A stretch of DNA of 64,000 nucleotides, taken from positions 58,295 through 122,294 of the IMG/VR virus record IMGVR_UViG_3300017917_001839. One strand, 5' to 3'. A program made the translations under genes and the position numbers. A model generated the notes under the pieces. That model had not been told where the DNA came from, made no database searches, and saw only the letters and a list, made by a program, of their open reading frames with translations. Source of the stretch: a virus. This document shows, piece after piece, positions 48,481 through 54,158 of the stretch (positions are counted from its first letter, which is position 1; every line of letters starts with the position of its first letter).

Positions 48481-48903
48481 ATGGAATGGACATATAAAGG
48501 TCAAACAGTAAACGAATTACCGGAAGGTACTGAAGCGTTTGTTTACTTGATTACTAACTTAACCAACAACAGAAAGTATGTGGGTAAAAAGTTAGCCAAG
48601 TTTAAAAAGACTCGCCCTCCACTAAAGGGCAAGAAAAACAAGCGTAGAAGTACAGTTGAAAGTGATTGGCGAGAGTACTGGGGCAGTAACGATCATCTTA
48701 AAGAAGATGTTGTACGTTTGGGCTCCGGTAACTTTACTAGGGAGATACTTTATTTCTGTCCTAGCAGAGGTGTAGCCAGTTATTTAGAAGCTAGAGAACA
48801 ATTTGATCGCAAAGTACTCGAAACGGACGAATATTACAACGGTATTATTAACGTTAGAGTAGGCGGTTCACAAATATTAAAAGAAGCACTCAAGGCATTA
48901 TAA
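48481..48903 (+). CDS. GIY-YIG-like endonuclease
   Basis: The 140-residue protein contains FVYLITNLTNNRKYVGKK, which corresponds to the GIY-YIG motif as VYL and KYVGKK. A basic segment RPPLKGKKNKRR follows, and ASYLEAREQFDRKVL gives the family's metal-binding glutamate. It resembles a conserved putative nuclease of T4-like marine phages rather than a mobile homing enzyme, although homing nucleases use the same fold. It is the last clear gene of the gp55 unit. The structured non-coding region begins immediately after its stop. Confidence 0.75.
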   Translation: MEWTYKGQTVNELPEGTEAFVYLITNLTNNRKYVGKKLAKFKKTRPPLKGKKNKRRSTVESDWREYWGSNDHLKEDVVRLGSGNFTREILYFCPSRGVASYLEAREQFDRKVLETDEYYNGIINVRVGGSQILKEALKAL

Positions 48904-49476
48904 CTACAATACAACATGGCATCCAGGCTTACACGGCTTACCAAAAAACTCTCCCAGGCATCAAATCCTTAAATTAACTAAGGCACAAACATAGGCACTG
49001 CACCGCCCCACCGAGGACTATATCGGTTTCCTTGAGGCTCCGTTTCGCTACGGCGTCAGATTCTGGAATGCAGTCGGCAAGATGCAAACAACGTTATGGC
49101 ATTGAAAGAATGTAGGCTCTGAGAAAAAGCAACCTACAAGCGGGTATAATCAAACTCCACTAGATTATACTGGCTTCCGAGCGAATACAAGTGACGGTAG
49201 TGTATGGGGAGAGAAGGCGCTCTGCTTCCTAATAAGCACCCGGGTTGGAGATGGTGAAGCTCATCGTGATGACGCTTTTCTTTTTGTTCATCCTGCAAAG
49301 GGTGAACTATGGCTCCACTTTCGTGATAACTTCTTAATAGTACTAAAATATCTTACAAGTGAATGAGTGAAGTGAAACGAAACGAATGAACGTAGTAAGA
49401 TAAGGCCTTAAAGGCCTAACAGTATGCACAATGAATAGCTGTGAGCATTTGTATTAGTGGTTCAAATCAACTAGCC
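48904..49476 (+). ncRNA. Candidate structured RNA region without a normal gene
   Basis: About 570 bases between the GIY-YIG-like gene and the gp26 unit have no frame with an ATG start longer than about 30 codons, and the base composition looks richer in G+C than its surroundings. Many stems can be read on the plus strand. GTATAATC/GATTATAC (49144-49151, 49163-49170) is extended by AAGC/GCTT. TGTAGG/CCTACA lies at 49111-49116 and 49133-49138, CCGT/ACGG at 49040-49053, and TGCTT/AAGCA at 49223-49238. TATCTTAC/GTAAGATA (49349-49356, 49395-49402) encloses a purine-rich GTGAA/GAATGA series. Near the 3' end GTGGTTCAAATCAACTAGCCA looks like a tRNA T-arm, but no matching 5' acceptor half is found. 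Strand and limits are uncertain. It could also be a decayed gene. Confidence 0.35.
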
Positions 49477-49483
49477 AAAAAAA

Positions 49484-49505
49484 AATCCCAGCCTAAACTG
49501 GGATT
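49484..49505 (-). terminator. Intrinsic terminator of the gp26 unit
   Basis: AATCCCAG (49484-49491) pairs with CTGGGATT (49498-49505). On the minus strand the stem is followed by nine T residues (49485-49477). It starts two bases after the TAA (49510-49508) of the -1 frame extension, which supports that extension being the end of the coding unit. Confidence 0.88.
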
Positions 49506-49507
49506 CT

Positions 49508-49747
49508 TTATAGATACTCCGAGGGTTGTTTGCCTGACTTAACTTGATTGTAGTTGTTTAATATTTTAACAGCTAACTCTCTTTCACTAAAACTCATGTT
49601 CCAGAGATCGTTCCATCTAAATGCACCCTCACTGTAGATTACTATTTCGGTAATCTGCTTTTGTAATTCCCCAGCTTCCTTTCTCAGCTTATTGATATAG
49701 TTTATAATATCTTGGGGTTCAGCTGATGCTAGGAAGCCGTGAAAAAA
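49508..49747 (-). CDS. -1 frameshift extension of gp26 (tail assembly protein, long form)
   Basis: Just before the gp26 stop the reading frame contains T TTT TTC (49747-49741), a perfect slippery heptamer where both Phe tRNAs can re-pair in the -1 frame. The -1 frame is then open for 77 codons to TAA at 49510-49508 and contains no ATG, GTG or TTG start before well-formed sequence begins. The added sequence is helical and charged (DIINYINKLRKEAGELQKQI, then EGAFRWNDLWNMSFSEREL). The long product would have about 357 residues (280 plus 77). Two-product tail assembly chaperones made by -1 frameshift are well known in lambda-like and many other tailed phages. Translation from a non-standard start is the alternative. 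Confidence 0.6.
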   Translation of the reverse strand, partial: FFHGFLASAEPQDIINYINKLRKEAGELQKQITEIVIYSEGAFRWNDLWNMSFSERELAVKILNNYNQVKSGKQPSEYL

Positions 49748-50580
49748 TTTACTGGGTCAAAGCCAACCTCCTGTTCGAATGCTCCGTGGTCTTCACATTC
49801 TAACTGGACTCGCTTGTTGACGCCGATCTTGTTGATGCCTGCGATCTTTTCTTCGATGGTCTTGCCAATAACGGTTTCGCAGTTCTCTAGGAACTCACGA
49901 ATCATTTTAGAGTCATCAACTACAAAAGTGTTACCTTCTTCGTCAACACCTTTGATATTAGCAACACTGTCAACAATAAGATCAAAGTTAAGTGCTGCAA
50001 TTCTCAAGAAACTATCGTTGAATGCCTTAAGCTGTTCCATCTCATCCTTAATGTCAGCTAGACCTTGTAAGCTACGTGTGCTCTTGAAATTAGCAATACC
50101 TGCCTTTACGGTACTTTCGTAGCTGAACGGCTTAAGTTCAATTACCAGACCGTTATGTGTTTCAAATGTATAAGTTGACTCTAGCACCTGCATGGTTTCA
50201 AGTGCTGCTTCAACACTAGCAATGCCCGAACACTCTTTGCCGCAGGTTGGGCAGTTACCTTTTACTTCAATGTCGTCGCCGTAGCTAGCACCTTGAATAG
50301 CAACCAGTAGCGCATCAATGTCGTTGCTGATTAGTCTACGTGGTTTCTTCACAGATGGAACACAACTGGAAATTAGTTGAGCAACAGCTTCACCATTCAG
50401 CAACGCATCCGGGTTCTTCATGATCAGCTCATCTTTTGCAGTCATGGGATAAACAGGCAACTCATTGCTGGATGGCATATCTACCACGTCTGGGTTATAG
50501 AAACGGCCACCACTGGGAATCTTGGTGTACAGCTTTGGCGCCCTAAAATACCCACTAAGTGGATTAGTTTGATTTGCCAT
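49729..50580 (-). CDS. gp26: Baseplate hub assembly protein gp26-like (T4_baseplate family)
   Basis: The 283-residue protein starts with NPLSGYFRAPKLYTKIPSGG and contains PVYPMTAKDELIMKNPDALL, typical of the T4 gp26 baseplate protein family. A zinc-ribbon-like GNCPTCGKECSG (near residue 105) and a later ECEDHGAFEQE may bind metal. T4 gp26 is 208 residues and helps assemble the baseplate hub without staying in the virion. ATG 50580 follows AGGAG. The gene is transcribed leftward from a late promoter at 50649-50642. It ends in a slippery run that probably gives a longer product. Confidence 0.82.
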   Translation of the reverse strand: MANQTNPLSGYFRAPKLYTKIPSGGRFYNPDVVDMPSSNELPVYPMTAKDELIMKNPDALLNGEAVAQLISSCVPSVKKPRRLISNDIDALLVAIQGASYGDDIEVKGNCPTCGKECSGIASVEAALETMQVLESTYTFETHNGLVIELKPFSYESTVKAGIANFKSTRSLQGLADIKDEMEQLKAFNDSFLRIAALNFDLIVDSVANIKGVDEEGNTFVVDDSKMIREFLENCETVIGKTIEEKIAGINKIGVNKRVQLECEDHGAFEQEVGFDPVNFFTAS

Positions 50581-50681: not shown

Positions 50682-53600
50682 ATGGCTGAAGCTGTATTAC
50701 CTGATGGCAGTGTTGTAAAGTTACCCGACTTTGCGTTAGAACAAACGCAAGCACAGATGCTGGCCACGCTAAAAGTATTGCTTAAAGGCGACAAAGAGTC
50801 ACAGGAACTTTATGAAAAGTTCCTGGATGAAGTTAAACAGGGAAACAAAGATTCTAAAAAAGCTGACGAAAAAGCACAAAAAGTTTTAGAAGAGATCAAA
50901 AAAACAAATATCAAGCAACAAGCGTCTTTTAGACAAAAAGTTGCAGACCGAATTGAAGGTGACGTACAGGGCGTGTTTGTTGGCGCAGGTCGTGCTGTTA
51001 GCGGACTTGCTACAGCCGCAGTATTAGCCACTGGTGCTATCATTGGTTTTGGTGCAAAGATATTTACAGGGTTAACTGATAACCTACGCGACCTAACACA
51101 AGCAGGTTTAGGTTTCAACGAAGGACTGGGACAAGGTGCTGCCGTTGCTATCCAACAGTTTAACTCTTTAGGCTATAGCACACAAGAAGCAACGCAAACA
51201 ATGATTAAGTTTGCTTCTCTAACTGCTACATTGGGTCGAACAGGCCCGGGCTCGTTGGTTAACACAATGAAGTCGTTTAAAGCTCTAACCAATAATGGTT
51301 TAGATCTAGGCATGACATTCAAAGAAGCTAACGAAGCACTATTAGAAGAATTAGAAACTCGTTCAAGTTTAGGCATGCTGGAAGGTTCTGTTACCGGTAG
51401 ACAGCTAGCAGCGGCTAACGAACAAATTAAATTACAAACAGCGTATGCAAGTGTACTAGGTATTAGTGCCGATAAGCTACGTGAAATGAACAAACAGACG
51501 CTGAGCCAAAACACTGGTCTTGTTGCGTTGATGAGTAAGTTTGGTAATAGTGTTTACGAAGGCGCCGCAGCGTTTAATACTGTTATGGCTGCTCGAGGTG
51601 AACAACTAGCTAAAGTTAGTCAGCTGTTCCTAGATGCTGGTGCGCAAAGTAGTGTATTCATTAGTGATGCAGCACGCGAATTAGCAGCCGCCGGCGTAGG
51701 TGGCATTACTGATACATTAATTAGCTTTGGTAGACAATTGCAATCTGGTGCGCTAAACAGCACAGCAGAAGGTGAAGCGGCTGCTCTAAAACTTCAAAAG
51801 AAAATAGGCAGTCTAAACAATACTCAAATTCAAAACTTACAGCGTGTAGTTGAAGCCGGCGGCGCCGGTGCTGAAGCTGCTAAAACAATTCTTCTTGCCT
51901 ACCTCGAAGTAAAACAAACTGAACGTAAGATGGCTGAAGTTGCTAAACGTTTAGGTAGTGGATTAAACATTGATGATCTGATGAAGGCTAGAATCAGTTT
52001 TGATAATAGTATTGCAGAGCTCAAAGGTGCGTTTGATGCATTACTAACCGCAGCAATGATTACTTTCACGCCAATGATTACTAAGTTTGCAAATAGTTTA
52101 ACAAAGTTTTCACAGGCGTTCCAAGATGAAACTGGCCGCGGCGGAAGAAAGATACGCGGTATTGGTACAGCACTACTTGATGGTATCAAACTAATTGGCG
52201 ATTCTATAATGAAGCTATTTGGATTTGACCCTGAAAAGTTAGTCGATCCAGACATGATACGCGATACTGTAGTTAAAAAGATTGACGGATTTGCAAAAAG
52301 TGTATCATCCATGATTGATAGATTTAGTGCTTACCTAGATACCTTTAAAGTAGGTGAAGGCGAAGCACAAAGAATTGATTGGTCTGCAATGTTCCGTGAT
52401 ATGGGTAAGCAAGTTGCAATAGGTATCTTAAACGGTATTGGTGATTTTCTCTGGTCATTGCCTGGCATGCTACTTGATGGTGCTGTGACTATGGTCAAAA
52501 GTGTCTTTATGGATCCACCAGAAGGTGAGGAGAAAGTTGGTGATACTATTCTCAGTGGTGTTTTAAAAATTGTTGGTGCATTATTTGCAGTAGGTGCTAT
52601 TAAAAGTATAGCGGCTGTTGGTATAGGAAAAATTAAAAGTGCAATCGCTGGAAAAATATTTGGCGAGTCAGCTGAATCTCTTTCTCAAAAGAGAACCGGC
52701 GGTTTATTAGATAAGATTCGAGGAAAAACACCTGAAACACCGGGCGGCGCTAGCCCTGCAGGTGCAAGTACATCAAAAGGTGGATCACGTGGTGCAGGTA
52801 AGTCTAACGTTGGTGCAGGATTTGCAAGCCTACTAGAAAATATTGGTAAAGGTTTAGGCGGACTAGGTAAAGGCCTAGGTGATTTCTTAAAGAGCGTTGG
52901 CAGTGGAGCCGGCAAAGGCTTAGAAGGATTATTTAAAGGCCTAGGTAAAGGTTTAACAGCACTAGGTAATCCAAAAGTATTACTTGGTACACTAGCACTT
53001 GGTGGTATTGGCGCAGCATTATTTGTAGCAGGAAAAGCACTACAAGAATTTACTAACATTGATGTACCAACAGTCTTAGTAGCAATTAGTGCATTAGCAG
53101 GTCTAGGTGTTGTAGCAGCAGCCGCAGGCTCATTTGCACCATTACTGGGTCTAGGTGCATTAGCAATTGGCGCTATTGGTTTAGCATTACATGCATTTCC
53201 TATAGACTTATTAAAAGCATTTGGCGATGTTTTAAACACAGTTGTAAACACTGTGATGGTGGGCATGCCGCCTATCATTACCGCGGTAGGTGATGCTCTA
53301 GCAAAATTAGTTGAAGTAGGTGCTAAAGGCTTTGACACAGTAATGCAAAGTGTTGGTACACTACTAGAACGAATTAATAAACTAGACGGTGGTAATTTAT
53401 TAGAATCTGCCGCTGGTATTGGTGCTGTAGGTGCAGCATTAGCAGCCTTAGGCGCTGGCAGTGTAGTTGGCGGCATTGGCAATTTCTTTGGCAGCTTGTT
53501 TGGCGGCGGCGATCCATTTGATCGTTTGATGAAGGTAGCAGACGCTTCTGGTAAGTTTGATGTGCTATCAGGTAGACTAAGCACACTAGCAGGTGTTATG

Positions 53601-54158
53601 GGAGAAACCGCTAAAGTAATTAAATCACTAGATCCACAGAACTTAGAAAAGATTGTTACCGAGTTTACAAGACTGTGGAGAAACTTAGCCAACGTTGAAC
53701 TAAACACAAAACCATACTATGACTTTGCGGCGATCAGCACAGAAGCTATGCTAAAGAATGCTGACGCAATTAACAAGATTGCTGCCGCAAACAAAGCACA
53801 GAACTTAGCTTATGCAGAGTTTATTAAATTAGACGATACTAAGTTTGCTAAGAACGTTCAAAATGCCTACAACTATAATGCAGCAAATGCCGGTGCAACT
53901 GAGCAAGGCGGACTAACACAAACTGTTAAAAATGTATTTGCGTCGCTGTTTGGCAATAAACCTGCTACACCTGTAGATAACTCAAAAATTAAGCCAACTG
54001 CACCAACTTCGGGCAACGTAGCCGAAAGTCCATTACTAAACTCATTGCAAACACCAGTGGACAAAGATTCAATTGGCAGAACGCCTGCACAAATTCTAGA
54101 ACAGGTTGAACGAGTATTACGTAGCGAATTAGGACAGATCCGCGAAAATACTAAGTAA
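50682..54158 (+). CDS. Tail tape-measure/hub-type protein (gp29 role)
   Basis: The 1,158-residue protein has a helical, charged N-terminus (EKFLDEVKQGNKDSKKADEK) and a hydrophobic segment near 105-130 (GLATAAVLATGAIIGFGAK). A long helical centre follows, with more hydrophobic Gly/Ala segments near 625-665 and 760-850 (TLALGGIGAALFVAGKAL; ALAGLGVVAAAAG). Between them lies a Gly-rich repeat LGGLGKGLGDFLKSVG. This helix-plus-membrane-like pattern is that of tape-measure proteins, which set tail length and pass into the host membrane with DNA. T4 uses gp29 (590 residues). The gene stands beside gp26 and before gp20, in an assembly context. No direct gp29 motif was recognised, so the call rests on build and position. 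Confidence 0.65.
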   Translation: MAEAVLPDGSVVKLPDFALEQTQAQMLATLKVLLKGDKESQELYEKFLDEVKQGNKDSKKADEKAQKVLEEIKKTNIKQQASFRQKVADRIEGDVQGVFVGAGRAVSGLATAAVLATGAIIGFGAKIFTGLTDNLRDLTQAGLGFNEGLGQGAAVAIQQFNSLGYSTQEATQTMIKFASLTATLGRTGPGSLVNTMKSFKALTNNGLDLGMTFKEANEALLEELETRSSLGMLEGSVTGRQLAAANEQIKLQTAYASVLGISADKLREMNKQTLSQNTGLVALMSKFGNSVYEGAAAFNTVMAARGEQLAKVSQLFLDAGAQSSVFISDAARELAAAGVGGITDTLISFGRQLQSGALNSTAEGEAAALKLQKKIGSLNNTQIQNLQRVVEAGGAGAEAAKTILLAYLEVKQTERKMAEVAKRLGSGLNIDDLMKARISFDNSIAELKGAFDALLTAAMITFTPMITKFANSLTKFSQAFQDETGRGGRKIRGIGTALLDGIKLIGDSIMKLFGFDPEKLVDPDMIRDTVVKKIDGFAKSVSSMIDRFSAYLDTFKVGEGEAQRIDWSAMFRDMGKQVAIGILNGIGDFLWSLPGMLLDGAVTMVKSVFMDPPEGEEKVGDTILSGVLKIVGALFAVGAIKSIAAVGIGKIKSAIAGKIFGESAESLSQKRTGGLLDKIRGKTPETPGGASPAGASTSKGGSRGAGKSNVGAGFASLLENIGKGLGGLGKGLGDFLKSVGSGAGKGLEGLFKGLGKGLTALGNPKVLLGTLALGGIGAALFVAGKALQEFTNIDVPTVLVAISALAGLGVVAAAAGSFAPLLGLGALAIGAIGLALHAFPIDLLKAFGDVLNTVVNTVMVGMPPIITAVGDALAKLVEVGAKGFDTVMQSVGTLLERINKLDGGNLLESAAGIGAVGAALAALGAGSVVGGIGNFFGSLFGGGDPFDRLMKVADASGKFDVLSGRLSTLAGVMGETAKVIKSLDPQNLEKIVTEFTRLWRNLANVELNTKPYYDFAAISTEAMLKNADAINKIAAANKAQNLAYAEFIKLDDTKFAKNVQNAYNYNAANAGATEQGGLTQTVKNVFASLFGNKPATPVDNSKIKPTAPTSGNVAESPLLNSLQTPVDKDSIGRTPAQILEQVERVLRSELGQIRENTK

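What the first reader, a model, noticed from the sequence alone, without database searches (positions are those of the whole stretch)
49508..49760. Probable programmed -1 frameshift at the end of gp26
The last codons of gp26 contain T TTT TTC (49747-49741), a perfect slippery heptamer, six codons before the stop. The -1 frame runs 77 codons without a usable start and ends two bases before a strong terminator. The added peptide is rich in charged helices and includes WNDLWNMSF. Two-length tail assembly proteins made by -1 frameshift are widespread in long-tailed phages, but T4-type phages are usually annotated with separate genes here, so annotation would miss this product.
Basis: partly seen in the sequence, partly recalled or inferred. 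Interest (0 to 1): 0.72.

Follow-up and report, generated by a model that had tools for sequence, protein, structure and literature searches.

The report
Frameshifted tail chaperone in jumbo phage
In this large T4-like virus of bacteria, ribosomes very probably slip back one letter at the end of a tail-assembly gene, so that one gene makes a short and a long helper protein; this is real and conserved in nearly all relatives checked, but the general trick was already known for phage tails.

Summary
The gp26-like gene (49729-50580, -) ends with in-frame T TTT TTC (49747-49741), and the -1 frame runs on without a usable start to TAA 49510-49508, just before a strong terminator. All 83 metagenome loci checked (some near-identical) and 21 of 23 named single-gene relatives (jumbo phages, cyanophages, DLP6, Aeh1, phi-Grn1) keep the slip site in phase plus a -1 tail. 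In the 16 closest sequences the -1 frame has no stop (93 and 110 in the other frames) and evolves as protein. PA5oct and SRB7757 have no start codon in it at all. New here: the RNA just after the site is more structured than synonymous shuffles or other parts of the gene, often pairing across the 0-frame stop. T4 has two paralogues instead: gp26 (short) and gp51, the same domain with such a tail in frame. Best reading: one gene gives a short and a frameshifted long tail-assembly chaperone, like lambda G/GT. Papers citing Vladimirov et al. 2022 show this is known for T4-like phages, so this is a new member of a known kind: an unannotated jumbo-phage branch, with an RNA element not found reported.

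The parts
49729..50580 (-). gp26-like gene, short tail-assembly chaperone (283 aa)
   Evidence: PF12322 60.6 bits (cut-off 24.5), phrog_150 E 1.1e-17
49741..49747 (-). slippery heptamer T TTT TTC in the 0 frame
   Evidence: sequence; invariant in relatives
49508..49740 (-). -1 frame tail, 77 codons after FF plus stop TAA, no usable start
   Evidence: open frame; homologues; purifying selection
49729..49731 (-). 0-frame stop TAG; its first base is paired in the stem
49672..49739 (-). predicted downstream RNA stem (arms 49739-49731 and 49680-49672), probable frameshift stimulator
   Evidence: z -4.55; synonymous-shuffle z about -3; 92% of cells paired in register
49478..49506 (-). intrinsic terminator
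   Evidence: hairpin plus T run, z -4.9
50682..54158 (+). divergent 1158-aa ORF, probable tape measure protein
   Evidence: similar to PA5oct structural protein at the same place, E 8e-8; RaK2 annotation of that position; inferred

Best explanation
One gene makes two tail-assembly chaperones. Most ribosomes read to TAG and give the 283-aa gp26-like protein. A minority slip back one base on U UUU UUC, probably helped by the RNA stem just downstream, and add a 77-residue helical tail (about 357 aa). By analogy with lambda G/GT, the shared domain would bind the tape measure protein, and the few long copies would use the tail to recruit tube subunits and start tube growth. T4 makes the same pair from two paralogous genes: 26 (short) and 51 (long, tail in frame). 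Shown here: slip site, conserved frame, purifying selection, RNA structure signal, homology of T4 gp26 and gp51 over the shared domain, and of the gp51 tail with the -1 tails of cyanophage-type phages. Inferred: that slippage happens, its rate, the stimulator role and the chaperone roles.
For: Heptamer and open -1 frame conserved in 83/83 metagenome loci and 21 named phages across several deep clades; no stops and protein-like evolution in the -1 frame; no start codon anywhere in the -1 frame of PA5oct and SRB7757, none near the site in the window and RaK2; conserved residues begin at the slip site, FF invariant. T4 gp26 and gp51 both hit PF12322 (8.8e-64, 3.9e-52) and phrog_150; the T4/RB43 gp51 tail matches the cyanophage-type -1 tails (hhalign 96%, E 2e-9). 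Downstream RNA lower in energy than synonymous shuffles: mean z -2.2 against -0.35 in control windows of the same genes, Mann-Whitney p 1.7e-13, not corrected for kinship. Gene lies beside a probable tape measure gene.
Against: No peptide or translation data. The model of the short form matched no solved structure, so the known chaperone fold was not recovered. Jumbo-group tails match the cyanophage-type tails (40%, E 3e-4) and the gp51 tail (34%, E 4e-4) only weakly. The RNA structure is missing in RaK2, BF, X1 and some cyanophages and differs between groups. The 5' arm codes in two frames and never varies, so there is no compensatory change.
Confidence: 0.9

Rival explanations
1. The -1 ORF is a separate small gene (the annotated gp51), started by re-initiation or coupling at a start codon near the gp26 stop.
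For: Many relatives have an ATG a few bases after the stop, e.g. P-SSM2, S-CRM01, 121Q and most cyanophage loci, and are annotated so.
Against: PA5oct and SRB7757 have no start codon in the frame; window, RaK2, Syn19 and Aeh1 none within about 50 nt; conservation begins upstream at the slip site; the heptamer is kept in phase in all; T4 gp51 is the fused form.
Confidence: 0.06
2. Transcriptional slippage on the T6 run adds one U in some mRNAs and gives the same fused protein.
For: A run of six T; RNA polymerase slippage is a known route to the same product in other systems (PMC4256274, PMC5009743 listed).
Against: The run is short and nearly always ends in C at the ribosomal A-site codon, in phase with the frame; slippage of polymerase should favour longer runs and not care about phase (own knowledge); structure lies downstream as for ribosomal frameshifting.
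Confidence: 0.04
3. Decayed C-terminus or sequencing error: the two frames were one gene and a base was lost.
For: T4 gp51 shows the fused state exists.
Against: The same frame relation in 83 loci and 21 phages sequenced independently, with both frames under constraint.
Confidence: 0.005

Closest known systems
T4-like tail assembly chaperones gp26/gp51 (Vladimirov, Gautam & Davidson 2022, Virology 566:9-15, seen only through PMC10885494 and PMC12846349)
   Same: Same protein family (PF12322/phrog_150); short and long form; poly-T slip signals reported for short-form genes of T4-like phages; some T4-like phages with one short and one long fusion gene.
   Different: The paper itself is not held, so I could not see whether the jumbo-phage branch or a downstream RNA structure is covered. 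In the window the pair comes from one gene.
Phage lambda gpG/gpGT
   Same: Short form plus rarer -1 frameshift long form near the tape measure gene; C-terminal tail only in the long form (review PMC5009743).
   Different: Other slip site (T TTT TTC here; G GGA AAG in lambda, own knowledge); no likeness tested at sequence level; here the tape measure candidate lies on the opposite strand.
Cyanophage and Aeh1 gp26 + gp51 as annotated (Sullivan 2010, PMC3037559)
   Same: Same locus; those small gp51 ORFs are the -1 tails.
   Different: There read as a gp51 of about 20% length and as missing in Aeh1; frameshifting explains both, the Aeh1 tail being present but unannotated.
Vandenendeviridae/Andersonviridae chaperone locus (phage Adele, PMC12846349)
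   Same: -1 frameshift at a T run at the end of the short chaperone gene; the rest usually annotated as a hypothetical protein.
   Different: Conserved motif given as GTTTTT; other phage families.

Membership tests
T4-type gp26/gp51 chaperone family (PF12322) | profile match above the curated cut-off | tested here: met
   60.6 bits against 24.5, residues 34-280; also phrog_150
T4-type gp26/gp51 chaperone family (PF12322) | long form carries a gp51-type C-terminal tail | tested here: inconclusive
   a -1 tail homologous among 26 phages and loci exists, but its profile match to the T4/RB43 gp51 tail is weak (34%, E 4e-4); strong only for cyanophage-type tails (96%, E 2e-9)
tail assembly chaperones made by programmed -1 frameshift (lambda G/GT type) | in-phase X XXY YYZ heptamer near the end of the short gene with an overlapping -1 ORF | tested here: met
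tail assembly chaperones made by programmed -1 frameshift (lambda G/GT type) | slip site and -1 frame conserved among relatives | tested here: met
   83/83 loci and 21 of 23 named single-gene relatives
tail assembly chaperones made by programmed -1 frameshift (lambda G/GT type) | gene beside the tape measure gene | tested here: inconclusive
   divergent 1158-aa ORF similar to the PA5oct protein at the same place and RaK2 note, but no family match for it
tail assembly chaperones made by programmed -1 frameshift (lambda G/GT type) | fold of solved tail assembly chaperones (HK97 gp13, PDB 2OB9) | tested here: inconclusive
   model with pLDDT 81 matched no PDB entry at E <= 0.001; it matches viral gp26-like models
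tail assembly chaperones made by programmed -1 frameshift (lambda G/GT type) | both products are made, the long one as a minority | not testable with these tools
   needs protein data

The most novel reading that the evidence does not exclude
Single-gene T4-superfamily phages carry an RNA stimulator just after the gp26 slip site, built differently in each lineage and often pairing across the 0-frame stop codon, that sets the short-to-long chaperone ratio; the T4 lineage left this control behind by using two genes, 26 and 51.
Probability: 0.5. Interest if true: 0.5.

Novelty: new member of a known kind. Interest (0 to 1): 0.4.

Why it matters
It corrects the annotation of a conserved tail-assembly gene in jumbo phages, cyanophages and Aeh1-like phages, where the long product is missing or split into a doubtful small gene. 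[quoted passage not shown] The downstream RNA signal gives a testable handle on how the short-to-long ratio is set.

Tried and rejected
Rfam search of the region: only a sub-threshold match, taken as chance. T4 late promoter TATAAATA: none in the window. An AGGAGG upstream of the slip site (dnaX-like stimulator) occurs only in the five closest sequences, so it is not a general feature. My first heptamer scan searched the wrong phase and reported none; the printed codons and correct it. Solved-structure searches by sequence and by fold gave nothing. The terminator scan missed the terminator that the fold shows. A conserved 21-nt intergenic motif below the terminator is not repeated in the window. 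The tree joins T4 gp26 with gp51 only through long branches (88/56), so I do not claim where the duplication happened.

Full report
What is there. The minus-strand gene at 49729-50580 encodes a 283-aa protein of the T4 gp26 family (PF12322; phrog_150). Its end reads GTA AAT TTT TTC ACG GCT TCC TAG, with T TTT TTC in phase at 49747-49741. In the -1 frame the reading goes on for 77 codons after FF to TAA at 49510-49508, with a single ATG far inside (134 nt past the TAG) and a strong terminator two bases after the stop. The window is part of a 122-kb virus record with a late sigma factor, SbcCD-like (gp46/47-type) genes and a T4-type portal gene; its nearest named relatives are jumbo phages.

Is it more than chance? 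Twenty-eight IMG/VR homologues all keep TTTTTTC in phase and a -1 frame open for exactly 221 nt past the 0-frame stop. Fifty-five further loci, 38 of them distinct, all keep TTTTTTC. Ten jumbo phages, DLP6 and ten other named phages, including cyanophages, phiM12, Moby, X1, Aeh1, SRB7757 and phi-Grn1, keep TTTTTTC or TTTTTTT. In phages that rarely use TTT for Phe (DLP6 0 of 11, SRB7757 3 of 15) the site still has TTT. In 16 close sequences the -1 frame has no stop after the 0-frame stop while the other two frames have 93 and 110; its third codon positions change fastest; pN/pS is 0.45 overall (saturated) and about 0.14 for the closest pair.

Why one fused protein and not two genes. Many records annotate the -1 ORF as a separate small protein or gp51, starting at an ATG a few bases after the stop. 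But PA5oct and SRB7757 have no ATG, GTG or TTG anywhere in it, and the window, RaK2, Syn19 and Aeh1 have none within about 50 nt. The conserved residues begin at the slip site itself. T4 gp51 is a natural fused form: both T4 gp26 and gp51 match PF12322, and the gp51 tail matches the cyanophage-type -1 tails (hhalign 96%, E 2e-9). The jumbo-group tails match those and gp51 only weakly, so their kinship to the gp51 tail is probable rather than proven. T4 and RB43 thus have a fused gp51 gene where most relatives have one gene with a slip site. Sullivan et al. 2010 noted that cyanophage gp51 has about 20% of the usual length and is missing in Aeh1; both follow if gp51 is the frameshift tail, which is present but unannotated in Aeh1.

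RNA structure. The 86 nt starting inside the slip site fold at -27 kcal/mol, z -4.55. Against synonymous-codon shuffles that keep the protein, the 80 nt after the slip site have mean z -2.2 over 44 sequences; control windows of the same genes have mean -0.35; Mann-Whitney p 1.7e-13, not corrected for kinship. All 15 members of the window's group tested there rank first among their own windows. The structures differ by lineage: in the window's closest relatives nine bases after the slip site pair with a segment about 60 nt on, reaching the first base of the TAG; in the next group nearly the same 5' arm pairs with a nearer segment and takes in the whole stop; Atu_ph07 and locus L113 have long stems of their own. 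RaK2, BF, X1 and some cyanophages show none. The 5' arm codes in two frames and hardly varies, so the pairing rests on one-sided changes (U-A to U-G), on register (92-94% of cells paired against at most 64% when slid) and on energy. I take it as a probable stimulator; that is inference.

Mechanism. Most ribosomes would stop at TAG and make the short protein; some slip at U UUU UUC and add the helical tail (model pLDDT 87, four helices). By analogy with lambda G/GT (review PMC5009743), the shared domain would bind the tape measure protein, probably encoded by the divergent 1158-aa ORF (RaK2 note), and the tail would recruit tube subunits. These roles are inferred. The model of the 283-aa protein matched viral gp26-like models but no solved structure.

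Novelty. A 2016 review says that G/GT-type frameshifting is widely conserved in long-tailed phages except T4. Vladimirov et al. 2022 identified the T4-like chaperones; the paper is not held, but two citing papers report its points: some T4-like phages use a short gene and a fused long gene instead of frameshifting, and poly-T slip signals occur in short-form genes of T4-like phages. The finding is thus a new member of a known kind. Not seen in the literature searched: the jumbo-phage branch and the downstream RNA structure.

Open points. Ackermannviridae 0507-KN2-1 and Vibrio D503 form one clade, keep the -1 ORF but lack a standard heptamer. The tree joins T4 gp26 and gp51 through long branches only.

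Noticed in passing
L053 1501-2304 and L056 1432-2172 (0507-KN2-1, Vibrio D503): Ackermannviridae-type relatives keep a gp51-like -1 ORF right after gp26 but have ATT TTC / CTT TTC instead of a heptamer; D503 has TAATG. Another slip type or re-initiation is open.
   Followed up: partly
window 11384-31720 (-): A single ORF of 6778 aa, not examined.
   Followed up: no
window 49349-49402: Intergenic stretch below the terminator with inverted repeat TATCTTAC/GTAAGATA and a TTACTACGTTCATTCGTTTCG motif; identical motif in L012 and L039, near-copies in L013 and L014.
   Followed up: partly
window 48481-48903 (+): 140-aa ORF with matches to homing-endonuclease PHROGs and to a PHROG labelled NAD synthetase; a similar reading seems to follow the chaperone gene directly in several relatives.
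   Followed up: no
L050 2205-2384 (Aeh1), L001 3834-4058 (PA5oct), L002 3831-4064 (Atu_ph07): Frameshift tail present in the DNA but missing from the annotation or only partly annotated; Aeh1 was reported as lacking gp51.
   Followed up: yes
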